Assembly (NCBI GenBank): GCA_030710605.1
Contig: CP092886.1
Location: 49,902,390 to 49,966,389, forward strand
Reading direction: 5' to 3'
DNA length: 64,000 nt
From: Cordylochernes scorpioides
Taxonomy: Eukaryota > Arthropoda > Arachnida > Pseudoscorpiones > Chernetidae
The translations under genes and the position numbers were made by a program. A model generated the notes under the pieces. The model saw nothing but the letters and a program-made list of their open reading frames with translations, had not been told where the DNA came from and made no database searches. Below are positions 13,162 through 61,377 of this stretch, piece by piece. The number at the start of each line of letters is the position of its first letter. Positions within the stretch are counted from its first letter, which is position 1.

Positions 13162-13261
13162 NNNNNNNNNNNNNNNNNNNNNNNNNNNNNNNNNNNNNNN
13201 NNNNNNNNNNNNNNNNNNNNNNNNNNNNNNNNNNNNNNNNNNNNNNNNNNNNNNNNNNNNN
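13162..13261. other. Assembly gap (100 N)
   Basis: Exactly 100 N, a conventional placeholder of unknown true size. The gypsy reverse transcriptase begins immediately after it, so the gap hides the upstream part of that element. Confidence 0.99.
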
Positions 13262-13264
13262 ACT

Positions 13265-15211
13265 CCAGAAGGAATAAGACCAACAGAATCGAAAGTTCAA
13301 GCCATGTTGGATTACAAAAAACCTGAAACAGTGCAAGATCTAAGAAGATTTTTAGGGATGCTAAATTTTTATCGTCGATTCTTGAAGAATGCAGCTGAAG
13401 ATCAAGCTATCTTGAACGATTTCATGAAGGGCTCTAAGAAAAATGACAAGCGTCCTATCCCCTGGACGGAAGAAGCTGAACAGAAATTTATAAAGTGCAA
13501 AACATAATTATCAAAAGCAGCACTATTGACATTCCCTGACCCCGAATGTCCTTTGGCTCTATTTACCAACGCTTCCGACAGAGCAATGGGTGCAGTCCTA
13601 CAACATTTCATAGATGGAGCTTGGAAGCCCAAAGCGTTCTTTTCAAAGAAATTGAGCGAAAGCCAGACCAAATATAGCACTTATGATCGCGAATTGCTAG
13701 CTATTTTTTCGGCAATCAAACATTTAAAATTTTTCTTGGAGGGTCGAGATTTTACCATTTTTACTGATCAGAAACCACTGATCTACGCCTTTCAACAAAA
13801 CCTCGAAAAAGCCTCTCCCCGTCAAGTTAGACAGTTGCAATACATCTCCCAATTCACGACTTCGATTCGGCAAGTCAGCGGCAAGGACAACCTGGTGGCC
13901 GATACGTTGTCAAGAATATCTGAAATCATCTCAATTGATTACGACATCATTGCTGAGAAACAACAAGACGATACTGAATTATCGAATCTTCGGTCACAAA
14001 ACAAGTTGCTGATTTTTAAAGAGCACTGCTTGCCTTCAGGAAAAACCCTTTGGTGCGATATCTCCACTAACAGAATAAGGCCATATATTCCAGAATTCAG
14101 GATGAACGTCTTCACATCAATTCATGGACTGTCTCATCCAGGAATTAAGACTACAGTCAGAGAAGTGACCTCGCGTTATATATGGCTTAATATCAACAAA
14201 GACATTAGGAATTGGACTAAGGGATGCATAAACTGCCAGAAGAGTAAAATAACTCGTCATACCAAAACTGAGTATGGTGAATTCGGGAAACCTGATGAGC
14301 GGTTTGGAACCGTCCACATCGACTTGATTGGACCTCTACCACCATCGGAAGGAAAAACCTATTGCCTGACCCTTATCGACCGTTCCACCAATTGGGTGGA
14401 AGTTCTGCCATTGGAAGACTTAAAAGCAGATACCATAATCAAATCCTTCTACAAGGAATGGATCAGCAGATATGGAACCCCATGCCATCTAATAACTGAT
14501 AGAGGCATGCAATTCATGTCTCAGAAACTTAAGGAATTTGCCAAAATGTGCGGAATCCAGTTGAAGCATACGACTTCATACCACCCCCAGAGCAATGGCA
14601 AAATTGAAAGGTTCCATCGAACTTTGAAAACCGCAATAAGTTCTCACAGCTACATCAGGTGGACCGAGAGGCTGCCTTCAGTACTGTTAGGATTAAGATC
14701 CTCAATCTATGGTTCTTCTGATTTTTCCATAGCACAAATGGTATTTGGCAAGACCATAAGACTTCCAGGAGAATTTTTCCAGGACTCTCAACAAACGAGA
14801 TAGAGATGATCTAATCAAAAACTTGCAAAAAGACATGTCTTCCCTCCAACCCATGAAATCAAGGATCAACCGGAATCCTAATATTTTCATTCATAAGGAC
14901 CTGCTAGAAAAGACAGAGTTAAAAAACCTCTCGAACCGGCTTATGAAGGCCCATTTAAGGTTTTGAAGAGGACTGTAAAATATTTTACAGTAATGGTTAA
15001 AGGAAAAGAAGACAATGTTTCCCTCGACCGTTTGAAACCAGCTTATCTTCTGAAGGAGTCATACCCTGAAGATGATGACCGGCGCCAGCAACCAGGGATC
15101 CAGCAGGACCTGCAACCTTCCAAGGCCCGTACCCAGAGAGTCCATTTTGAGGAACCCCAAAGGACTCGTAGTGGCAGAGTGATTCATCTTCCCCAAAGAT
15201 TTTTAACATAA
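13265..15211 (+). pseudogene. Gypsy Pol fragment: RT C-terminus, RNase H, integrase
   Basis: RT palm/thumb LRRFLGMLNFYRRF (13340-13385) leads to an in-frame TAA at 13505-13507. RNase H follows: LFTNASDRAMGAVL (first catalytic Asp replaced by Asn), YSTYDRELLAIFSAIKH, and TDQKPL. Integrase has HGLSHPG...CINCQKSK (H2C2), HIDLIGPLP, TDRGMQF and NGKIERFHR (DDE triad intact, 14315-14610). Frame breaks near 14795 and 14940 separate the tail LKRTVKYFTV...SLDRLKPAYLL. The enzyme would reverse-transcribe and integrate the element inside Gag particles. One stop and two frameshifts mark a moderately old copy. Confidence 0.92.
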
Positions 15212-15241
15212 CGTGACCTCGGTCACTGGAGGGGGAGTGAA

Positions 15242-15505
15242 TGTAGGGTTAAATAATTCCAATTGCCACACCTAGATGGTGCTGTGTTAAACTTTGTGTT
15301 TTATAAAAGTTACATTTTGTAAATGTAAATATTTAATTATTATTTTTTAAATTATTGTATATTCTATTGTAAACAATATGTTATATTTCTTTATTGTTAG
15401 AATACCATTTAACTAAAATTGTATGCCTGTATAAGTCGAGAGACTTTTTGAAATAAAAACAACTTTTAATGGCTAACCGTGTCTGTGGTAATTAATTATC
15501 CTACA
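15242..15505 (+). repeat. Gypsy 3' LTR, 264 bp
   Basis: Starts TGTAGGGTTAAATAATTCC after the polypurine tract and ends AATTAATTATCCTACA, giving TG...CA with a longer imperfect terminal inversion. A poly(A) signal AATAAA lies at about 15452. The matching 5' LTR is not in the window. Confidence 0.85.
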
Positions 15506-15542
15506 ATTCCATTAGATCCTGTGTGGATCTCATGGAATAAAT

Positions 15543-15597
15543 CCGCCCTAGGCTGACGAGGGCCATTAGCCCGAAACCATGGTCTCCAGGTGGACGC
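15543..15597 (+). ncRNA. Hammerhead ribozyme, type I, unit 1
   Basis: Seen directly: core CTGACGA at 15553-15559 (consensus CUGANGA), helix II GGGC/GCCC (15560-15563 with 15569-15572, 5-nt loop), GAAA at 15573-15576, minimal helix III ACC/GGT (15576-15578 with 15581-15583) and GTC at 15582-15584, a permitted cleavage triplet. Helix I joins GG (15551-15552) with TC (15585-15586) and, past an internal loop, CGCCC (15544-15548) with GGACG (15592-15596), one mismatch. Every invariant core base is present. The self-complementary CCATGG suggests helix III forms best between two molecules or two repeat units. Cleavage is inferred, not shown. Confidence 0.75.
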
Positions 15598-15862
15598 TTT
15601 TCAGTTTTCCAAAGCTGGTGTTGTGGCTTTGTCACCGACCCGAGGCCGCAAGTTTGCGGCGACGGTCAATAGATGGCGTATAGTTTTGACATCTATTTCG
15701 ACGGGAGAGGCGACCCTCTTCTCTTTAGATCAATATCCTCCCGACAAAATTTCCATCTATATTTTAGCCATAGATTTGGCCCAGCCACTTTGCCAGCTAA
15801 GCACCTCTTTGGCAAATTGTCAAGATTCCATTAGATCCTGTGAGGATCTCATGGAATAAAGT

Positions 15863-15917
15863 CCGCCCTAGGTTGACGAGGGCCATTAGCCCGAAACCAT
15901 GGTCTCCAGTTGGGCGC
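15863..15917 (+). ncRNA. Hammerhead ribozyme, type I, unit 2 (core-mutated)
   Basis: Same layout as unit 1, 320 bp downstream. Helix II (15880-15892), GAAA (15893-15896), the CCATGG helix III and GTC (15902-15904) are unchanged, and outer helix I is perfect here (CGCCC 15864-15868 with GGGCG 15912-15916). The core reads TTGACGA because the first base (C3, needed for the C3-G8 pair) is T. It is therefore predicted inactive, though its GTC site could still be cut by another copy's core in a dimer. Confidence 0.7.
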
Positions 15918-16083
15918 TTTTCAGTTTGCCAAAGCTGCTGTTGTGGCTTTGTCACCGACCCGAGGCCACTAGTTTGCAGCGACAGTCAATAGATGGCATC
16001 TAGTTTGACATCTATTTTGACGGGAGAGGCTACCTTTGTCTCTTTAGATCAATATCTGCCGGCAAAATTTCCATCTATATATA

Positions 16084-16530
16084 TGTTATATTAAAATAAT
16101 TTATTTGAAATGTTATATTGAAATATTTTATTTAAAAATGTTATATGTTAAAATGTTATTTTATTTAAAGTTATAATTTCATTGATATAAATACTCTGTT
16201 TTAATCGACCGCCAGAGGTCACGCCTTCTTTATAAATAATCATTGTTGTTGTTCTTCCCCGCTGGTCGGCTCAAACCATATGTAATTATGTAAATATTCT
16301 TTTGTTTTTCATATTTTTTATTCTTACGCCTTAAGCCAGGCTGTACTTGTACAAAATTGTTTTTAATATGAATTCATTTCTTAGCTCAATAAAGCAATAT
16401 CTGATCAAGACCATTTTATTATTATTCTTTCAAGAAATTTAGCCACGACTGCACCACCATTACAATAATCCTCAACATGATCAAATATCAAGCAGAAACT
16501 CAGAAAATTTTTTTTTAAATTAATATAATA
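16084..16530 (+). repeat. 5' LTR of the non-coding LTR element
   Basis: Begins TGTTATATTAA and ends TTAATATAATA, an inverted end with one mismatch. Contains AATAAA in CTCAATAAAGC (~16387) and a GACCGCCAGAGGTCACGCC segment. The base after the LTR does not give an obvious tRNA primer site. Confidence 0.88.
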
Positions 16531-18224
16531 TAAGCCGACAGGATATTTACCTGTTCGTTCAAAATTTTCAAAAGCAAAATTATTCAATATCAAAAATACA
16601 AATACTTTAAACAAAGATTTCTTCAACCTGATAGCCTAATTCATTCAAAGTCATAGCTTCAAGCCATGCTCATCTCCAGCGGCCATCTCCAGTTAACTCC
16701 AGACAACTCAGGATAACTTCAACCATCACCCGCAACAAGCAGCCTTTTCCCATGCAACACCAGTCATCTACAGCCAACTCTAGCCAGCATCATCCAACCC
16801 AAGGTACTTTGTATCTACCTTTTTACTTATTTATCTCTTAACTTCTTAATCTTCATCCAATATTTACAATAGTGTCAATCGCCTATTATAGTTATATACT
16901 CCTTTTTCAAATTGATTTTAGATACCAATTTTGCCATAGCTGTTTTTCCTTTTGAATAGAGCCACACCTTTTAATTATTTTAAAACCTTTTATTTCTTTG
17001 TATAATTAGTTCTCTCTCTCTCTTCTAGATATATTTAATTCTATATTTTATTTTAAAAACATTTGCAATTAAAGCATTTGCACCTTATCGTTTTTATATT
17101 TCTAAATGTAAAACAGTCGGCCGGGAGTACAACAACAACAACAAATTAACATATCTCTCACATTCAATTTCTTTATTTAAAAATTAGCTAAACTTTAATG
17201 TTTTTTTTTTTCATATTTTGCAATTTTTCTTTTTCAATATGTTCAAAATTCCCTATTGCTTGTCATATGACCAAAATACCCTCTATAGCTTCACATTTAT
17301 ATTTAAAATTCCCTAACTTTTGATAGGTTATTTTCTTATTTAATCTCATAAAAAATGTTTTATTTACAAAATTAGCATTTTTACCCCTTTTAAATTTATT
17401 TTTAAATGCCATAATCTTTTAATATGTTTCTCTTCTCGCCTAACAAATATGTAAATTTACCGTAGTAAACATATGTAAATTTTAACTTTTGTTTTTGTTC
17501 ACCATGATTCTTTTTTTTTCAATGCCCATTCTTTATTCTTGCCATTAATTCATTTATCTTTAACATTATAATCATTTATCTTTATGTTCATTCCTTGTTT
17601 TCACATTTACTTTTTGTACATAAACTTTTGTCTCTACTTATTGCCTTTTCTCATAAATGCCTTTTTCTTATAATCATCAAATGTTTATAGCATTTCCATA
17701 TATCTTTGCCAATTATTTTTTATATTGTTTTCTATGTTTTTCTTCTTTATTTTTCATTCACATACTTTTGCAATTATTTTGTTTTCAATGTTATCTTTTC
17801 TTTAAATTTTCCTTCCTCATTTTTGATGTTATATATGTGCATTTTTTCTTTCTCTTTCCAATCTGTTGGTTAATAACAAACCAATATGATTAGGGAATAT
17901 CACATTTTTACTCTTCACCATATTTTGTTATCATCATTCACACTTGTAATTTCCAATCTATTGGTTAACAATAAACCAATATGATTATGGATTATCACAT
18001 TTTTATTTTCACTTGCTCCCAATTGTTTTGTTATTATTCATTTTTATCATTTATATAATTTTGTACTTTCCTGTCTATTGGTTACCATATTTAAAACTAA
18101 TATGATAAGTGAATATCACCTCTCACATTATTTTCTTTCCATAAATCATTTTATCTTTTTTAACAATATTTTTTTTATCACTTTTCTCTGAATGAACCCA
18201 TGTTATTTTCTTCACAGGGGGAAA
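16531..18224 (+). other. Non-coding interior of the LTR element
   Basis: A 150-bp stretch of CAACTCCAG-type pyrimidine/CA-rich sequence (16665-16805) is followed by T-rich DNA. A sentence-like repeat near 17865-18115 (TTGGTTAACAATAAACCAATATGATTA-like, split here as TTGGTTAACAATAAACC) recurs three times. No protein domain. Confidence 0.7.
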
Positions 18225-18674
18225 TGTTATATTAAAATAATTTATTTGAAATGTTATATTGAAATATTTTATTTAAAAATGTTATATGTTAAAATGTTAT
18301 TTTATTTAAAGTTATAATTTCATTGATATAAATACTCTGTTTTAATCGACCGCCAGAGGTCACGCCTTCTTTATAAATAATCATTGTTGTTGTTCTTCCC
18401 CGCTGGTCGGCTCAAACCATATGTAATTATGTAAATATTCTTTTGTTTTTCATATTTATTATTCTTACGCCTTAAGCCAGGCTGTACTTGTACAAAATTA
18501 TGTTTTTAATATGAATTCATTTCTAAGCTCAATAAAGCAATATCTGATCAAGACCATTTTATTATTATTCTTTCAAGAAATTTAGCCACGACTGCACCAC
18601 CATTACAATAATCCTCAACATGATCAAATATCAAGCAGAAACTCAGAAAACATTTTTTAAAAATTAATATAATA
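18225..18674 (+). repeat. 3' LTR of the non-coding LTR element
   Basis: Copy of 16084-16530, differing by a handful of single-base changes and small indels in T or A runs. It ends in a TATATA run that continues into the neighbouring repeat. Confidence 0.88.
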
Positions 18675-18699
18675 TATATATATATTTTATATCTATAAT

Positions 18700-47080: not shown

Positions 47081-47759
47081 GTGCCCGACCTAGCTCAGTA
47101 ATAATAACATTTATGCTTGTGTACCAACTTGGATTAAACCTAGATACATACACAAATGAAATGTATCACACACCACAGATACACACCTGTTTTGTATTTT
47201 GATTAAGGATAAAAATATTACCAGAACACTTTCAAATATTAAAACATTAAATTTTATTCAACTCGGTGAATTTACAACACTTCATTTTATAGGCAATTTT
47301 ACATGGACAAAAATTTTGTTTAAGGATTTCAAGCAAGAATGGATTTTTTTCTATTAGAAACATGTAACTACTACCTCGGCAGATTTTGCTAAACACTAAG
47401 ACTTCATGCAAAGGACAAAATATGAATTCTTCTTCCCTATAAAAAATAAGCTAAAAATATATCTCTCTGACATATTAAATATGCCCTAAATTAATGGGAA
47501 AGATGCTAACATACCGTTTCTCCTGGATACCAGCGTTCCCTCTCGGATAGGTCACTTTCGTACGCCGCCCGTTCAAAAACTCGCTGTTATCTTTCAAACA
47601 GCGACCCGAGGTAAATCGTCATCTTCCTACAGAGTAAAAAAAAGAGAATAATATTCTTAGAATATTATTAAATAATAAAATATTATTATTATTAAAAAAA
47701 AAATAATAGTAATAAAGAAAATATTCTTTTTTAAAAGAATATATAGAAATAATAATAAG
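47081..47759. other. Non-coding segment interrupting LINE D
   Basis: AT-rich, no domain. CTCTCGGATAGGTCACTTTC near 47532 stands out as GC-richer, unassigned. Confidence 0.5.
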
Positions 47760-48120
47760 GATAGTAAAATATAAAAAAAATTTTTCTCTAAATTTAAAAT
47801 AATTTCTCCTTTAAGAAATTCGAAATTAAACTTCTTCTTTTTAAAAGAAAAGTTTGAGATAATAAAAAAATTGATAAAAATAAGGATAATAAAATATAAA
47901 AATTTTCTTTAAATTTAAAGTAATTTCTTCTTTAAGAAATTCGAAATTAAACTTCTTCTTTTTAAAAGAAAAGTTTGAGATAATAAAAAAATTGATAAAA
48001 TAGGGATAATAAAATATATTTTTTTTTTATTTTAAATTTAAAGTAATTTCTTCTTTAAGAAATTCGAAATTAAACTTCTTCTCTTTAAAAGAAAGCTTGA
48101 GATAATAATAAAATTGATCT
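47760..48120 (+). repeat. AT-rich tandem repeat, about 120-bp unit, three copies
   Basis: AAGAAATTCGAAATTAAACT with CTTCTTTTTAAAAGAAAAGT recurs at about 47813, 47935 and 48057, each followed by TTGAGATAATAAAAAAATTG. Internal TTTAAA/AAGAAATTC inversions give each unit hairpin potential. Confidence 0.8.
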
Positions 48121-48791: not shown

Positions 48792-49019
48792 ATATCAATT
48801 AAGAAATATCAGAAGATGAGTTTCTTTTATTGTATGAATGCTACGAGCTTTCGGGCAAAAGCCCTTCGACAGGCAAAAATATAACTATACTAAGAAAGAT
48901 ATAAATCGTTATCTTTCTTAGTATAGTTATATTTTTGCCTGTCGAAGGGCTTTTGCCCGAAAGCTCGTAGCATTCATACAATAAAAGAAACTCATCTTCT
49001 GATCTTTCTTAATTGATAT
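48792..49019. repeat. Near-perfect palindrome with hammerhead-like core
   Basis: Arms 48792-48900 and 48911-49019 are inverted copies of 109 bp with about one mismatch and a 10-nt spacer. ATTGTTGGGTCTA flanks the block on both sides (48754-48766 and 49018-49030), suggesting a target-site duplication. On the plus strand 48939-48962 reads CTGTCGA, A, GGGC/GCCC stem with TTTT loop, GAAA. Compared with a hammerhead core it has A6 changed to U and one extra A. Transcripts of either strand would fold into one long hairpin. Confidence 0.8.
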
Positions 49020-51690: not shown

Positions 51691-51762
51691 TCACAATCTA
51701 ATAAATAAGAAAAATGAGAATAAATTTTACAGAGAACAATTAAAGAACAAAAAAATAATAAT

Positions 51763-52947
51763 ATGCCACCGATTGTAATTAAATCGACGATCGGACCAAC
51801 CGGCGAGAAACTATGCATAATCGAAGCCTCCTTAATAACGAAGATCCTAGACAAATGTGGAATCGAGTATAAACTTGAGGAAACAGTTCAATCAAAGAAG
51901 AGAACTCGCGGCTCCCAGGATGACTCAAGATCGCCAACTAGGAACGAGCGTAACCTGAAGACGCCTAGAATGGACATCGACGAACAAAGTCCCGCCACTG
52001 GAGTTTCTCAACAAATGAACGCAGCTCACCCACCGCAAGACGATGAAGAAAATAACGACAACGATGGCCCATGGACCACAGTCACTAACGTGAAAAAACC
52101 GAGAATTCCTCCTGTTATTGCAGAAAATGTAGCAGATTGGAAGCTTCTTTGCCAAGAACTAAAAGACTTGTGCATGGAACCATTCCAAGTCACGATTTCT
52201 GGCAAAAAGCACATAATTAAATCGAAAAACATAGGCGACTTAAAAAAAATCAGGAAATATGTACAGAAAAATAATGGAGGATATTCCTACAGACTACAGG
52301 AGGAAAAACCGCTAAAAGTGGTATTGAAGGGGGTATCAACAGCCTTCAAAGAAGAAGACGTCGTAACTGAACTGGTCTCAATGTGCTTCACTGAGGTCAT
52401 TGTCAAAAGACTCCATAGACAATCGACCAAAATACCGATGAATATAGTCCTAGTAGAGCTACCGAAAAATGAACAAAATAAACGAATCTATGGAATAACC
52501 GAAATACTTTATCAAAAAATAGTCGTGGAATCATTCAGGACTACAAAACGAGTGACCCAATGCTTTAACTGCCAGGGTTTTGGGCATGGCCAGCTAAACT
52601 GCTTTTTGAAGCCCAAATGCGTCAAGTGTGCTGAAGAACACCATTCGAAGGATTGTCCAAGAAACTCGAAACAGCTCCCACCAAAGTGCGCTAACTGTGG
52701 AGAGGCGCACACAGCCAATTACCGCGGATGCCCAAATTTTCCGAAGCCACAACAACAGCAGCTAAAGCCTCCCAGACAAAACTACCCTAACACCATACCT
52801 CAAGCAAGCTCCACTAAAACAGAAGAAGCAACTGCTGAAAAACAAAAGGCAAGTTACGCTGAAACTGCAAAAAAGAAAACTACTCGTTCTGACACCAGGG
52901 AACTGTGCGAAAAGTTATTAGAAATTATCAAAACCTTCTTACAATGA
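51763..52947 (+). CDS. Jockey-type LINE ORF1 (Gag-like, 394 aa)
   Basis: The N-terminal 120 residues are charged and probably disordered. Residues ~165-260 form the pre-C2HC region (KPLKVVLKGVSTAFKEEDVV, PKNEQNKRIYGITEIL). Three zinc knuckles follow at ~266-325: CFNCQGFGHGQLNC, CVKCAEEHHSKDC and CANCGEAHTANYRGC. The Lys/Gln/Thr-rich tail ends LLEIIKTFLQ. It binds element RNA and escorts it to the nucleus in related jockey elements. The stop TGA overlaps the ORF2 ATG (ATGA at 52944-52947), so ORF2 is probably made by termination-reinitiation. The start at 51763 is the first ATG of the element. Confidence 0.93.
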   Translation: MPPIVIKSTIGPTGEKLCIIEASLITKILDKCGIEYKLEETVQSKKRTRGSQDDSRSPTRNERNLKTPRMDIDEQSPATGVSQQMNAAHPPQDDEENNDNDGPWTTVTNVKKPRIPPVIAENVADWKLLCQELKDLCMEPFQVTISGKKHIIKSKNIGDLKKIRKYVQKNNGGYSYRLQEEKPLKVVLKGVSTAFKEEDVVTELVSMCFTEVIVKRLHRQSTKIPMNIVLVELPKNEQNKRIYGITEILYQKIVVESFRTTKRVTQCFNCQGFGHGQLNCFLKPKCVKCAEEHHSKDCPRNSKQLPPKCANCGEAHTANYRGCPNFPKPQQQQLKPPRQNYPNTIPQASSTKTEEATAEKQKASYAETAKKKTTRSDTRELCEKLLEIIKTFLQ

Positions 52948-55556
52948 AAGGCAAATTACCTTTAAAAATCATTTTCTGGAATTGCAACGGAATCAAACTC
53001 AAAAAAGAAGAATTCCTACAGTTTTTAGAAGAAAACTCAATAGACATGGCACTGCTCAGTGAAACACACTTAAAACCATCTGTCGACCTCAAACTCAGAA
53101 ACTATCAGACAATAAGAGACGATAGAATCGTTGGAAGGGGCGGTGGAACGGCAATAATTCTAAAAAACTATCTTAAATATAAAAAAGTGATGATTCAAAC
53201 ATCTAACATGGAAAACACCACAATACTAATGAAACCAGATGGAAGGGCAGTAGTGCAGATATCGTCAATCTATAAGAAACCCGATCTACCACTCCTGGAG
53301 GAAGATCTGAATCTCTTGTTAGAGAATAATCAATCAGTAATCGCTGCAGGAGACTGGAACTCCAAGCACCCTCTTTGGGGCTCAAGAACCTCCAATAATA
53401 GTGGAACCGTGCTTCATAATTTTTCCGAAAAAGAAAACCTGGACATTGTCGCACTTTCTTCACCCACGCACTACAGTCCTTTGGGAAATCCAGACTTTCT
53501 AGACATCGCAATTCTTAGAAACATCCCCTGGACTTCGAGGATTAAGACCCTGGATGTCTTATCTTCAGATCACCTCCCAGTAATCCTAGAGCTGACCTGC
53601 CCGAAGGATGAATTCACGACTAGGGCTTGTCGACTCACTAACTGGGTTCACTTCCAACAAGACTTAATTTCCAGTACGCCTCCTAGAGTATCCTTGAAAA
53701 CGGAAGCCAATATTGACTCAGCAGTGACCATACTAAATGATAAAATCTACAACAGCTACTCAAAAAACACGGTTATATCATCCTCTTCATCAAAACAGAA
53801 CCCTTCGACCAAGGCCTTGATAAAAGAAAAGAATAAAGCTCGTAAGAGATGGCAAGCAACCTGGGATCCAGCCCATAGAGCCATTTATTTAAACCTACAG
53901 GGAAAAGTTAACAAAGCCCTCAAATCTGACTCCACCGAGAACTGGAATCAATTCATACACAAGATTGAATCAAGCCCAAAGGACTTCTGGAGAAAAACAA
54001 AACCTATCAGGAAAAAAACGGAAAGGATCTCAAATTTAGTAATGAACGGCAAAACCTTATTGACCGACAAAGAAATCGGAAATGAACTTGCAGAACACTT
54101 CTCCAAGGAAAAAGAAGAAGACCAACCAAACATAACTTATAATCACCAACAAGAAAAAATGCTCACAGTGACGACACCAAATGAAGTCAAGGAAGTGATT
54201 AAATACTTAACTAACCACAAAGCTCCTGGCCATGACAATATCACTCCGCAAATGGCCAAGAATCTTCCCATCAAATGGATTGTATTTCTAGCCGGAGTTT
54301 TCAACGCCGCACTGCACTTGTGTTACTACCCCAAAGTCTGGAAGCATGCTATCATAATTCCAATTCCAAAAAAATCCGCTAAATCCCCTGAAGATCTAAG
54401 ACCTATCAGCCTCCTCCCCACCATCGGCAAAATTTACGAAATAATTATTTTACGTAGACTTCAGAGGTACTTGGACAACTCTAATTTCATCATCCCGCAG
54501 CAATTCGGATTTAGAAGGGGGCATTCAACAACTCACCAACTCATTGCAGTTATGGACTACATCCAGATAAGAAGATCCCACAAGGAAGTGGTAGGTGCAG
54601 TCTTTCTAGATTTTGCGAAAGCATTTGATAAAGTTTGGCATAATGGCCTTATAAAGAAACTCACAAAACACCAGTTTCCAAGTGACATTATAAATTTTAT
54701 GCAGAATTATCTACAGGGCAGGACATTTTCAGTCAAGCAAGGAAATTTTATAACTGAACCAAAGCCAATCCAGACTGGAGTACCTCAAGGCTCTATCCTC
54801 GGACCCTACCTTTTCAATATTTACATTAATGACATCCCACTGCACTCTAAATGTAAACTTAAGCTCTTCGCAGATGACACAGCAATTTTATTTAACTCTA
54901 AATCAGTCGACCTATTGGTTACTCAGCTTCAGAACTACCTAAATGACATAATCAAATGGTGCGATGAGTGGAAACTAGACATTAACCCAACTAAGACTCA
55001 AGCAATAGTTTTTTCCCCAAGAGATAACAAAAAATTCAAGCCACAAACCAACTTGACAGTAAACTCAAGCACTATTAGTTGGGTCGACCATGCCAAGTAT
55101 CTTGGTGTCACTTTGGATTCGAAATTAAAATTTAACCTACATGTCCAAAACACCATAAGAAAGGCAAAGATAGCCAAAATAGCTCTATCAAGTCTGCTTA
55201 ATTTTAAAAGTAATTTAACAACAAAGCATAAATTCACGTTGTACAAAACCTGTATTCTACCCATCATCACGTACGCACTACCAGTCTGGGGCAAATATAT
55301 CACACCTACGGATAAAAAAAGAATAGATGCCTTCATAAGGATTTGCTTACGAACCATTATAGGAGCCCCATTCAATCTTTCAAACAAAATTCTCAAAGAA
55401 GATCTCAACCAGCCTAATATAGAAGATATTTATCAAGACTCTGCGACAAGACTATTCTCGCAATTTCAAAAATCATCAAATCCAACTATACAAGAAATTG
55501 TTCAAAATCAAGGTGACCTCAGCCACCGAATCCGACGACCTGGACCCAATGGCTAG
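52944..55556 (+). CDS. Jockey-type LINE ORF2: EEP endonuclease and reverse transcriptase (870 aa)
   Basis: Start set at the ATG overlapping the ORF1 stop; an upstream Met at 52905 is also in frame but lies inside ORF1. Endonuclease (1-220): FWNCNGI, LLSETHLKP, GDWNSKHPLWGS at ~134, and SDHLPVILEL at ~206. RT (~420-720): APGHDNITPQM, LRPISLLPTIGK, QFGFRRGHSTTHQL, FLDFAKAFDKVW at ~553, TGVPQGSILGP at ~611, and LFADDTAILF at ~641. The C-terminus keeps YALPVWGKYITP. No RNase H, as in jockey proper. It nicks chromosomal DNA and copies its RNA at the nick. No stop or frameshift. Confidence 0.95.
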   Translation: MKGKLPLKIIFWNCNGIKLKKEEFLQFLEENSIDMALLSETHLKPSVDLKLRNYQTIRDDRIVGRGGGTAIILKNYLKYKKVMIQTSNMENTTILMKPDGRAVVQISSIYKKPDLPLLEEDLNLLLENNQSVIAAGDWNSKHPLWGSRTSNNSGTVLHNFSEKENLDIVALSSPTHYSPLGNPDFLDIAILRNIPWTSRIKTLDVLSSDHLPVILELTCPKDEFTTRACRLTNWVHFQQDLISSTPPRVSLKTEANIDSAVTILNDKIYNSYSKNTVISSSSSKQNPSTKALIKEKNKARKRWQATWDPAHRAIYLNLQGKVNKALKSDSTENWNQFIHKIESSPKDFWRKTKPIRKKTERISNLVMNGKTLLTDKEIGNELAEHFSKEKEEDQPNITYNHQQEKMLTVTTPNEVKEVIKYLTNHKAPGHDNITPQMAKNLPIKWIVFLAGVFNAALHLCYYPKVWKHAIIIPIPKKSAKSPEDLRPISLLPTIGKIYEIIILRRLQRYLDNSNFIIPQQFGFRRGHSTTHQLIAVMDYIQIRRSHKEVVGAVFLDFAKAFDKVWHNGLIKKLTKHQFPSDIINFMQNYLQGRTFSVKQGNFITEPKPIQTGVPQGSILGPYLFNIYINDIPLHSKCKLKLFADDTAILFNSKSVDLLVTQLQNYLNDIIKWCDEWKLDINPTKTQAIVFSPRDNKKFKPQTNLTVNSSTISWVDHAKYLGVTLDSKLKFNLHVQNTIRKAKIAKIALSSLLNFKSNLTTKHKFTLYKTCILPIITYALPVWGKYITPTDKKRIDAFIRICLRTIIGAPFNLSNKILKEDLNQPNIEDIYQDSATRLFSQFQKSSNPTIQEIVQNQGDLSHRIRRPGPNG

Positions 55557-58292: not shown

Positions 58293-58363
58293 CCATCGGT
58301 GGTTCAGTGGTAGAATGCTCGCCTGCCACGCGGGCGGCCCGGGTTCGATTCCCGGCCAATGCA
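58293..58363 (+). tRNA. trnG-GCC: tRNA-Gly (GCC anticodon), acceptor stem damaged
   Basis: Cloverleaf elements: A box TGGTTCAGTGG, anticodon stem CTCGC/GCGGG with loop CTGCCAC (anticodon GCC), and T arm CCGGGTTCGATTCCCGG (B box). 71 nt, usual for this tRNA. The acceptor stem has two mismatches, at 1-72 (C-C) and 5-68 (C-A), both single changes from the common metazoan tRNA-Gly. Pol III signals look intact and a T run follows at once. It may be transcribed, but charging or processing is doubtful; a tRNA pseudogene is the safer reading. It lies inside a Helitron. Confidence 0.85.
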
Positions 58364-60610: not shown

Positions 60611-60717
60611 AGAATTTTGTAGTTTTTAAATGCGTATTTTGTATATTATATATAATTATGTGAGAAATTGATACTGTTTTTGATGCGTATGATTCTTTTT
60701 GATATAAAACAATTTTA

Positions 60718-61200
60718 TACCGCCCATACTGCAATGACAAATTAATGAGAGGGCCTGGCTCATCAGTGGTGAACCTTTCCAGCGGTTTCGCCAGTTTAAG
60801 CTACCATACCGTTGTAATATTGCATTGAGCAGGTTTAGCTTTTATACTGATGCTGAAATTGACCTCTAGGAGAAAGTATTATGAATGAACTATGGACATT
60901 AGCTTTGAGGAAAGTATAAATACATACAATGTTTTAGGAATGTTTCTATTTATTATTTTTTTCGCATCTATATAGTTTTTAAGTATTTCTACTATCCTCA
61001 ATGCTTATGTCCATAGTTTATTTAAAATACCTTCTTCAAGAAGTCAGCTTCAGTATCCGTATAGAAGCAAAACAGCCCAATGCAATATTACAGCGGCATG
61101 GTGGATTAAACTGGCGAAACCGCTGGGAGGGTCCACCACTGATGAGCCAGGTCCTCCCATTAATTTATCATTTCAGTAAGGGCGGTAGAAAATTGTTTCA
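60718..61200. mobile_element. Foldback MITE, same family as 4188-4486
   Basis: 60718-60860 and 61045-61200 are inverted copies. Each holds the family core: GGCCTGGCTCATCAGTGGTG on the plus strand at left, and its complement (CACCACTGATGAGCCAGGTC) at right, followed outward by CCGCCC..TACTG-type ends. The spacer is AT-rich. No transposase, no clear target duplication. Confidence 0.7.
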
Positions 61201-61377
61201 TATTAAAAATATTCATACTCATCAAAAATAGTTTCAATTTCTTATACCAGATGGCGGGCTAATGCATCATATTATAATTGTGTACATGAATGTTTTCGCA
61301 CTTTATTCAAAACATTTCTTTTTTTTTTCTTAATATATAATTTCATTTAATTATTTGATATAATTATATTTTGTTTA

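What the first reader, a model, noticed from the sequence alone, without database searches (positions are those of the whole stretch)
15506..16083. Tandem ~320-bp repeat with a hammerhead ribozyme in each unit
Seen directly: in unit 1 every invariant hammerhead base (CTGACGA, GAAA, GTC) is in place with a 4-bp helix II, and the outer helix I pairs despite sequence change between units (GGACG versus GGGCG opposite CGCCC). Known: such designs occur in retrozymes, satellite DNAs of newts and schistosomes, and Penelope-like elements. Helix III is only ACC/GGT in a self-complementary ACCATGGT, pointing to cleavage as a dimer of neighbouring units. No RT is linked to it here, so it may be a non-autonomous, possibly circular-RNA-forming repeat.
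Basis: partly seen in the sequence, partly recalled or inferred. Interest (0 to 1): 0.8.

Follow-up and report, generated by a model that had tools for sequence, protein, structure and literature searches.

The report
Self-cutting RNA parasite riding Penelope elements
This is one decayed copy of a very numerous small jumping repeat that carries a self-cutting RNA (a "retrozyme") in a pseudoscorpion genome, and the way sampled copies are joined into the DNA suggests that small RNA circles are copied by the enzymes of Penelope-like elements, a helper that earlier work proposed but left open.

Summary
The repeat is real: 15506-15824 and 15825-16080 are 91.5% alike. Unit 1 has every hammerhead core base; unit 2 has lost C3, and helix I is mismatched in both. 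Rfam finds nothing, but the core has 25,391 places in the host genome, control 0. Host: the pseudoscorpion Cordylochernes scorpioides. It is a new animal non-LTR retrozyme; a second family, RZ2, has 27,886 places.

Of 43 head-to-head insertions sampled, 40 had both ends typed, and all 40 join one cDNA started at site A to one started at site B, 32 nt apart. Halves of a locus share private variants and often cross the ribozyme cut point, some for several laps, as if one RNA circle was primed from both ends of a staggered break. Penelope-like elements show the same ends (14 of 16 pairs, 2 half-typed), RZ2 in 9 of 10, and a Penelope RT is known to start at two adjacent internal sites (PMC11167929). 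So these retrozymes probably use the Penelope machinery. Cleavage and circles remain untested.

The parts
15506..15824 (+). Retrozyme RZ1 unit 1 (319 bp); starts directly after the LTR-like end ...TCCTACA, so its own 5' side is not in the window
15825..16080 (+). Retrozyme RZ1 unit 2, partial; ends at 3' end type A (CCATCTAT, q254-257) and runs into TATATATG
15541..15597 (+). Type I hammerhead of unit 1, all core bases present, helix I with an A.C mismatch; cleavage 15584/15585
15861..15917 (+). Type I hammerhead of unit 2, core broken (C3 to T at 15873); cleavage point would be 15904/15905
15702..15743 (+). Proposed start-site stem-loop CGGGAG...CTCCCG; reverse-transcription start site B at 15730/15731 (q225)
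   Evidence: B ends observed in other copies; stem (post hoc)
15753..15768 (+). Start site A of unit 1 (CCATCTATATTTTAGC; ends of other copies typed A lie at q250-272)

Best explanation
RZ1 is an animal non-LTR retrozyme. A transcript of the repeat is cut by its type I hammerheads (as single motifs or as dimers through ACCAUGGU) and the 319-nt monomer is closed to a circle by a host RNA ligase (both inferred from relatives in PMC7229834). The protein of a Penelope-like element (PLE) takes up the circle, cuts AT-rich DNA with a stagger of about 12-14 nt, and both 3' ends of the cut prime reverse transcription on the same circle, one at site A (q about 257) and one at site B (q about 225; q = window position minus 15505). 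The two cDNAs run the same way round the circle for 25-1342 nt in the sample, often past the closed cleavage site, sometimes for several laps, and are joined head to head by end joining. Shown by sequence: fixed A and B ends, one of each per typed composite, target duplications, independent inner ends, shared private variants, and the same pair of ends in PLEs of this genome. Inferred: cleavage, ligation, that the circle is monomeric, and that the PLE protein is the enzyme.
For: 40 of 40 head-to-head composites with both ends typed are A+B (43 composites found, 3 with one end untyped). The halves meet at template positions more than 10 nt apart in 39 of 40. Halves of one locus share non-consensus letters 1.81, 1.32 and 1.55 per 100 against 0.41, 0.25 and 0.30 between loci of the same subfamily; A-B distance within loci is reached by 21, 11 and 10 of 2000 permutations. 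Subfamily labels agree in 38 of 40. L067: halves differ at 1 of 319 though each is 17-18 from consensus; L011: 1 of 246, 10 and 17 from consensus. Laps differ at 1 of 528 in L067 A, 2 of 166 in L067 B, 8 of 1018 in L005 A, 7 of 279 in L004 B. Read-through of q79/80: A 16 of 40, B 30 of 43; longer than 319 nt: A 10 of 40, B 6 of 43; 5 of 83 inner ends at q75-90, 4.2 expected. Target duplications of at least 12 bp in 20 of 40, control 5%; flanks 77% AT against 67% at 300 nt away. PLE-2 of the same genome: 14 of 16 fetched pairs have one tail end and one no-tail end, 2 have a tail end and an untyped end, plus L073. RZ2: 9 A+B, 1 A+A, 2 not fully typed. PMC11167929 (parts 1-2 of 4 and passages): a PLE RT starts at two adjacent internal RNA sites, the stretch between them being the PLE 'tail' (30-40 bp), and both target strands are cut and extended. 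PMC7229834 (parts 1-4 of 6) and PMC7761336 (passages) leave the mobilising RT open.
Against: No RNA data: neither cleavage nor circles were tested. 16 copies longer than 120 nt and above 88% identity counted as single, not composite; L008 and L057 of these show an inverted piece by eye, L001 is cut by the LTR, the other 13 show none that I found. Not all loci share variants: in L028 the halves differ at 11 of 187, about the sum of their own changes (8 of 219 and 11 of 285). Of 14 multi-lap comparisons, 10 differ by 3.4-22% between laps (worst L030 B, 33 of 148), which age may explain but which does not by itself show one template. Gene conversion between inverted halves could raise sharing. 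RZ1 has no sequence match to the PLE-2 pLTR+tail (score 17 against a shuffled mean of 16.9). The A/B distances differ (28 nt in PLE-2, 32 in RZ1, 47 in RZ2). PLE-2 itself shows tail/no-tail pairs, so the A+B rule may come from the protein complex and not from a monomeric RNA. One RZ2 composite is A+A (L110, halves 78% and 96% identical to the unit, so perhaps two insertions). Two composites had no duplication of 5 bp or more (L004 and L007). In PMC11167929 ribozyme mutants did not change insertion in vitro. Two tail-to-tail neighbours (L018, L039). Rfam does not recognise the ribozyme. The sample is small and, apart from L001-L008, from the first 12 Mb of one contig.
Confidence: 0.77

Rival explanations
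1. The template is a linear RNA (uncut transcript of tandem copies, or the cut monomer) and not a circle.
For: Tandem genomic copies exist (L005, L067), several multi-lap copies have diverged laps, and PMC11167929 found that unprocessed RNA is used by a PLE protein in vitro and that ribozyme mutants do not change insertion.
Against: A cut linear monomer should stop cDNA at q80: 5 of 83 inner ends lie at q75-90, 4.2 expected. A long multimer offers several A and B sites, yet A+A and B+B are 0 of 40. Laps are nearly identical in L067 and L005.
Confidence: 0.18
2. Head-to-head structures arise by self-priming of one cDNA, as proposed for Penelope elements on an antisense template (PMC3846280).
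For: PMC3846280 interprets head-to-head inverted repeats with palindromes at the junction this way (passages). One RZ1 composite, L016, meets within 10 nt.
Against: Snap-back makes a palindrome; in 39 of 40 composites the halves meet at template positions more than 10 nt apart, and in all 40 they start at two different sites.
Confidence: 0.05
3. A LINE mobilises the retrozyme and the inversions are ordinary twin priming.
For: Twin priming is known for L1 (PMC2837659, abstract start seen in the listing), and the window holds LINE-like reading frames (by eye).
Against: L1 twin priming, as I recall it, uses scattered inner sites; here both starts are fixed and paired in 40 of 40, as in PLE-2. The ends printed show no poly-A tail of the element.
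Confidence: 0.05
4. It is a DNA transposon or foldback element with two terminal inverted ends (ATAGATGG and ATAGAAGC).
For: Both ends begin with ATAG-like letters in part of the copies and are flanked by duplications.
Against: Copies do not share a centre: inner ends are scattered, halves range from 25 to 1342 nt, and laps of the unit occur inside one half.
Confidence: 0.02
5. It is plain satellite DNA with a chance or fossil hammerhead.
For: The window copy is a two-unit tandem with a broken second ribozyme, Rfam finds nothing, and the window ribozymes do not fold better than shuffles.
Against: 25,391 places, control 0; target duplications; ribozyme core 3 of 333 letters changed against 289 of 6730 outside the ribozyme and probe in 20 composites not chosen by the exact core (rows are related, so indicative only).
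Confidence: 0.03

Closest known systems
Animal non-LTR retrozymes (Cervera and de la Pena 2020, PMC7229834; parts 1-4 of 6 read)
   Same: Type I hammerhead with short palindromic helix III, non-coding unit of 319 bp, laps in tandem, target duplications longer than 4 bp, PLEs with hammerheads in the same genome.
   Different: 43 head-to-head composites against 16 single copies here, a structure that the parts of that paper which I read do not describe; GC of unit 1 is 48.6%, under the 50% of its text but over the 45% of its figure legend; no expression data here.
Penelope-like elements with the 'tail' (PMC11167929, parts 1-2 of 4; PMC3846280, passages)
   Same: Two fixed adjacent 3' ends, head-to-head copies, AT-rich targets, hammerhead in the repeat, short target duplications; PLE-2 of this genome shows it.
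   Different: RZ1 has no ORF and no sequence similarity to the PLE-2 pLTR+tail; its unit is 319 bp, whereas PLE-2 has a 799-aa frame.
Plant LTR retrozymes (PMC4918200, listing only; features as told in PMC7229834 and PMC7761336)
   Same: Hammerhead repeats that form circles and are copied in trans.
   Different: Those have type III hammerheads, LTRs, PBS/PPT and 4-bp duplications.
Amphibian satellite hammerheads (newt, axolotl; as told in PMC7229834)
   Same: Repeat of about 330 bp and a weak palindromic helix III that favours dimer cleavage.
   Different: Here helix III can form two pairs with a CAUG loop; different sequence and host.

Membership tests
Animal non-LTR retrozyme | Type I hammerhead with intact core in the family | tested here: met
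   25,391 core places with up to 3 mismatches; all three helices pair in L004, L008, L028. Window unit 2 is broken; Rfam silent.
Animal non-LTR retrozyme | Non-coding repeat unit of about 170-400 bp, tandem copies | tested here: met
   319-bp unit; 10 of 40 A halves and 6 of 43 B halves exceed one lap; no frame of 110 aa or more over the window copy.
Animal non-LTR retrozyme | Low GC (under 50% in the text, under 45% in the figure legend of PMC7229834) | tested here: inconclusive
   48.6% unit 1, 47.3% unit 2, 49.5% consensus.
Animal non-LTR retrozyme | No LTR, PBS or PPT | not tested
   None noticed by eye; no dedicated search was made. The neighbouring LTR-like stretch 15242-15505 belongs to another element.
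Animal non-LTR retrozyme | Target duplications longer than 4 bp | tested here: met
   At least 7 bp in 37 of 40 composites (control 31%), at least 12 bp in 20 of 40 (control 5%).
Animal non-LTR retrozyme | Accumulates as linear and circular RNA | not testable with these tools
   No RNA data at hand.
Animal non-LTR retrozyme | Self-cleavage in vitro | not testable with these tools
   Bench test.
Penelope-like element (as a member) | Own ORF with RT and endonuclease | tested here: not met
   No frame of 110 aa or more over the repeat; hence not filed as a PLE.
PLE-type insertion (works like) | Two adjacent fixed 3' ends, the longer one (tail) on exactly one side of head-to-head copies | tested here: met
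   RZ1 40 of 40 typed, 3 more half-typed; PLE-2 14 of 16, 2 half-typed; RZ2 9 of 10 typed, 2 more half-typed.
PLE-type insertion (works like) | AT-rich target | tested here: met
   30-nt flanks of 40 composites 77.3% AT (n=80), 67.2% at 300 nt away (n=79).

The most novel reading that the evidence does not exclude
Animal retrozymes are to Penelope-like elements what Alu is to L1. One monomeric RNA circle is loaded by a PLE protein dimer, and each 3' end of a staggered break primes at its own site (A or B) of that one circle, so that each insertion records a two-ended, rolling copy of a single circle. This would make such genomes a fossil record of circular-RNA retrotransposition and would speak for two-ended priming, not snap-back, as the way PLEs make head-to-head copies.
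Probability: 0.58. Interest if true: 0.78.

Novelty: new member of a known kind. Interest (0 to 1): 0.64.

Why it matters
Papers on animal retrozymes leave open which RT moves them, with PLEs or LINEs as candidates (PMC7229834, parts 1-4 of 6; PMC7761336 and PMC11722881, passages). Here the insertion ends carry the two-start-site 'tail' signature that the abstract of PMC11167929 calls unique to PLEs, in two retrozyme families and in autonomous PLEs of one genome. That turns a suggestion into a testable claim, and gives evidence from genomic copies that RNA templates were copied past the ribozyme cut point, sometimes in several laps, and primed from both ends of a DNA break.

Tried and rejected
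Rfam as proof of the ribozyme: no hammerhead match for RZ1; only Hammerhead_HH9 below threshold, on RZ2-type copies in L003, L007, L032 and L055. Family search PF21804 was a wrong guess of mine (it is Transposase_29) and says nothing. Sequence similarity between RZ1 and the PLE-2 pLTR+tail: none; RZ1 and RZ2 against four PLE loci: RZ1 no match at E<=1, RZ2 only short matches at E 0.12. Clustering of inner ends at the cleavage site: none. B-half inner ends at q28-55 look frequent, but part of the sample was chosen for an intact q48-79, so I do not use it. The start-site stem (CGGGAG/CTCCCG in RZ1, GGTCAGG/CCTGACC in RZ2, CTCTTC/GAAGAG in PLE-2; loops 30, 29, 31 nt; 3' strand 7-9 nt after B) was noticed first and tested afterwards; shuffles reach it in 5.3, 1.7 and 5.7%, and 13.7, 4.8 and 7.0% of positions in the same sequences do, so it is only suggestive. 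Circle folding: -116.9 kcal/mol for the c1 consensus, z about -5.4 against mononucleotide shuffles only; A is in a predicted loop in c1, c2 and c3, B in an open loop in c1 and c3 but at a 2-bp hairpin in c2. The window ribozymes do not fold better than shuffles (z -0.55 and -0.02; L028 -2.10). Helix II covariation between RZ1 and RZ2-type ribozymes (pair 2 G-C 6, C-G 3, G-U 1): the RZ2-type rows were picked by a scan that required four helix II pairs, so the 40 of 40 paired cells are no evidence. The AT repeats after 16083 are flank, not element.

Selection and dropped rows: of 68 loci first held, 12 were dropped as repeats of the same or a duplicated place (L002, L006, L029, L033, L041-L043, L047, L050, L054, L060, L068). 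L001-L008 are the best BLAST places, L009-L038 were chosen by an exact ribozyme core, L039-L068 by another exact segment, the last two sets from the start of contig C1. BLAST pieces under 18 nt were dropped. The 16 PLE-2 pairs were picked by me from minus/plus neighbours in the listing (not all such neighbours; PLE-1 pairs not examined), and their ends were fetched by position before I saw them. The RZ2 tally used 23 loci: 18 fetched, picked by me from the 100 places listed and including three minus/plus pairs, and 5 already held. One RZ2 half counted as A (L116) is only 18 nt long.

Full report
What is in the window (q = window position minus 15505). 15506-15824 and 15825-16080 are two copies, the second partial, of one unit, 91.5% identical over 258 columns. 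Unit 1 has every core base of a type I hammerhead with a cut point at 15584/15585; unit 2 has C3 changed to T. In the window copies the inner helix I (CCTAGG/TCCAGG, CCTAGG/TCCAGT) has an A.C mismatch, whereas L004, L008 and L028 have six helix I pairs next to the core. Rfam recognises no hammerhead in it or on RZ1 copies in 20 relatives. On its left the copy stops at 15505/15506, where what I read as an LTR (TGTAGG...CCTACA, 15242-15505; by eye) ends; its right end is of type A.

Host and numbers. The window lies in a 2.62-Gb genome of 24 contigs. A protein search with a retroelement of that genome returned, as its best named hits, proteins of Cordylochernes scorpioides, a pseudoscorpion, on contigs of exactly the same lengths: 223,678,689 = C1, and 180,100,396 = C24, which holds the window and a protein numbered LAZ67_X000769, so presumably chromosome X. 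The ribozyme core (32 bases, up to 3 mismatches) has 12,620 + 12,771 places; a 30-base segment downstream 35,026; a 30-base segment upstream 10,856; reversed-pattern control 0 in each. The patterns are taken from the window copy, so the counts are not strictly comparable.

How copies are built. I held 68 loci and dropped 12 repeats of the same or a duplicated place (list in Tried and rejected). In the other 56 the script found 43 head-to-head composites, a minus-strand piece followed by a plus-strand piece, and 27 single pieces, 16 of them over 120 nt and 88% identity. The outer ends of composites fall on two sites: A, ending ...CCATCTAT (q about 257), and B, ending ...TCTTTAGAT or the subfamily forms ...CTTCTAT and ...CTTCCAT (q about 225). 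Forty composites have both ends typed and all 40 are A+B; 0 are A+A, 0 are B+B; 3 have one end untyped (L003, L020, L049). Of 17 copies whose upstream sequence I read, five show an inverted piece (L008 and L057, missed by the script; L020, L058 and L066, already counted as composites) and 12 show none that I could see; L010 and L021 look like simple insertions with duplications. Two tail-to-tail neighbours were seen (L018, L039). Target duplications: at least 12 exact bases in 20 of 40 against 5% in shuffled pairings, at least 7 in 37 of 40 against 31%; the flanks are AT-rich (77.3%), which is why the control is not zero, and several of the long matches are TATATA runs.

What the template was. 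The halves meet at template positions more than 10 nt apart in 39 of 40, with overlapping letters in 24, extra letters in 13 and neither in 3, as expected of end joining of two independent cDNAs. Halves of one locus share non-consensus letters four to five times more often than halves of different loci of the same subfamily, and carry the same subfamily label in 38 of 40. In L067 the two halves differ at 1 of 319 positions though each is 17-18 from the consensus, and in L011 at 1 of 246; in L028, by contrast, they differ at 11 of 187 and share little (five loci printed). Laps within a half are nearly identical in L067 (1 of 528; 2 of 166) and L005 (8 of 1018 in a 1342-nt half), close in L004 (7 of 279), but the other ten comparisons differ by 3.4-22%, worst in L030 (33 of 148), an old copy. 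cDNAs cross the ribozyme cut point (A 16 of 40, B 30 of 43), exceed one lap in 10 of 40 and 6 of 43, and show no pile-up of inner ends there (5 of 83, 4.2 expected). One RNA circle copied from both DNA ends explains this most simply; gene conversion between halves could contribute to the sharing.

The Penelope link. The genome holds many PLE copies (150 scored of 17,918 candidates; several open frames of 798-799 aa). L073 is a head-to-head PLE-2 copy with a 799-aa frame (RVT_1, E 1.5e-7), a hammerhead-like motif in its 160-bp pLTR, one end without and one end with a 28-nt tail, and a 12-bp duplication by eye. I then fetched both ends of 16 more PLE-2 pairs by position: 14 are tail + no-tail, 2 have a tail end and an untyped end (L088, L092), none is tail + tail or no-tail + no-tail; duplication-like matches of 12-15 bp in 15 of 16, no shuffled control run for these. 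Listed PLE homologues carry the Pfam domains PF00078, PF28514 and PF26215, and P0020 also GIY-YIG, PF01541. PMC11167929 (parts 1-2 of 4 and passages) shows for a lizard PLE that its RT starts at two adjacent internal RNA sites, that the 30-40 bp between them are the PLE 'tail', and that both target strands are cut and extended; it saw no difference in start site between the strands and no need for the ribozyme in vitro. PMC3846280 (passages) describes a 31-bp tail, optional, on one of the inverted pLTRs, and duplications of 8-10 bp. RZ1 shows the same picture with a 32-nt spacing and no sequence similarity.

A second family. RZ2 (349-bp unit; L063 1941 and 2290) has a hammerhead with different helices; 27,886 places with up to 2 mismatches, control 0. 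Its ends are at q about 191 and 238 of its own unit. Of 12 composites in 23 loci, 9 are A+B, 1 is A+A (L110, whose halves are 78% and 96% identical to the unit, so perhaps two events) and 2 have an untyped end.

Print. Eight searches on retrozymes with Penelope, inverted, twin priming, tail, target site duplication, the host and pseudoscorpions listed no paper that, by title, abstract start or the passages I read, reports PLE-type ends for retrozymes or retrozymes in pseudoscorpions. The library holds only open-licence PMC papers, and the 2014 paper on PLE hammerheads was not held. PMC11722881 (passages) still lists LINEs or PLEs as candidates. PMC8490949 (passages) notes possible target duplications for schistosome satellites, some with hammerheads.

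Verdict. An ordinary, decayed copy in itself; a new member of the animal non-LTR retrozymes; and a clear set of insertion scars which says that these retrozymes probably move by the Penelope machinery, most likely on circular templates. Cleavage, circles and the enzyme remain to be shown at the bench.

Noticed in passing
16083-16532 and 18224-18676: The AT-rich DNA after the repeat is duplicated about 1.7 kb downstream at 98% identity, without the retrozyme.
   Followed up: no
13262-15505: Remains of an LTR (gypsy-like, by eye) retrotransposon: frame at 13508-14800 and an LTR-like stretch 15242-15505; a run of 100 N at 13162-13261 hides its other side. L002 (C24, 187 kb away) repeats the LTR and retrozyme arrangement.
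   Followed up: partly
L063:1941-2476; L003, L007, L021, L055: Second tandem hammerhead family RZ2 (349-bp unit), 27,886 places.
   Followed up: yes
L008:2406-2483: Two PLE-type hammerhead motifs in an almost perfect inverted repeat; Rfam scores it as miRNA precursors below threshold.
   Followed up: no
L005:343-395 and L040:394-440: Below-threshold matches to the twister-P1 ribozyme (33.7 and 29.4 bits, gathering 67.2).
   Followed up: no
L072 (reverse strand, about 2787 on): The PLE-1 family has CTCTTC...GAAGAG near its end, like PLE-2, and a hammerhead-like stretch with a changed core (by eye).
   Followed up: partly
51724-55553: Two long open frames (407 and 887 aa), by eye zinc-knuckle and endonuclease/RT of a nearly intact LINE.
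   Followed up: no
60663-61242 and 48792-49019: Stretches that match their own reverse complement at 80% and 96% identity, i.e. long palindromes.
   Followed up: no
47749-48118: Tandem repeat of a 121-bp unit, 3 copies.
   Followed up: no
58293-58363: tRNA-Gly (GCC).
   Followed up: no
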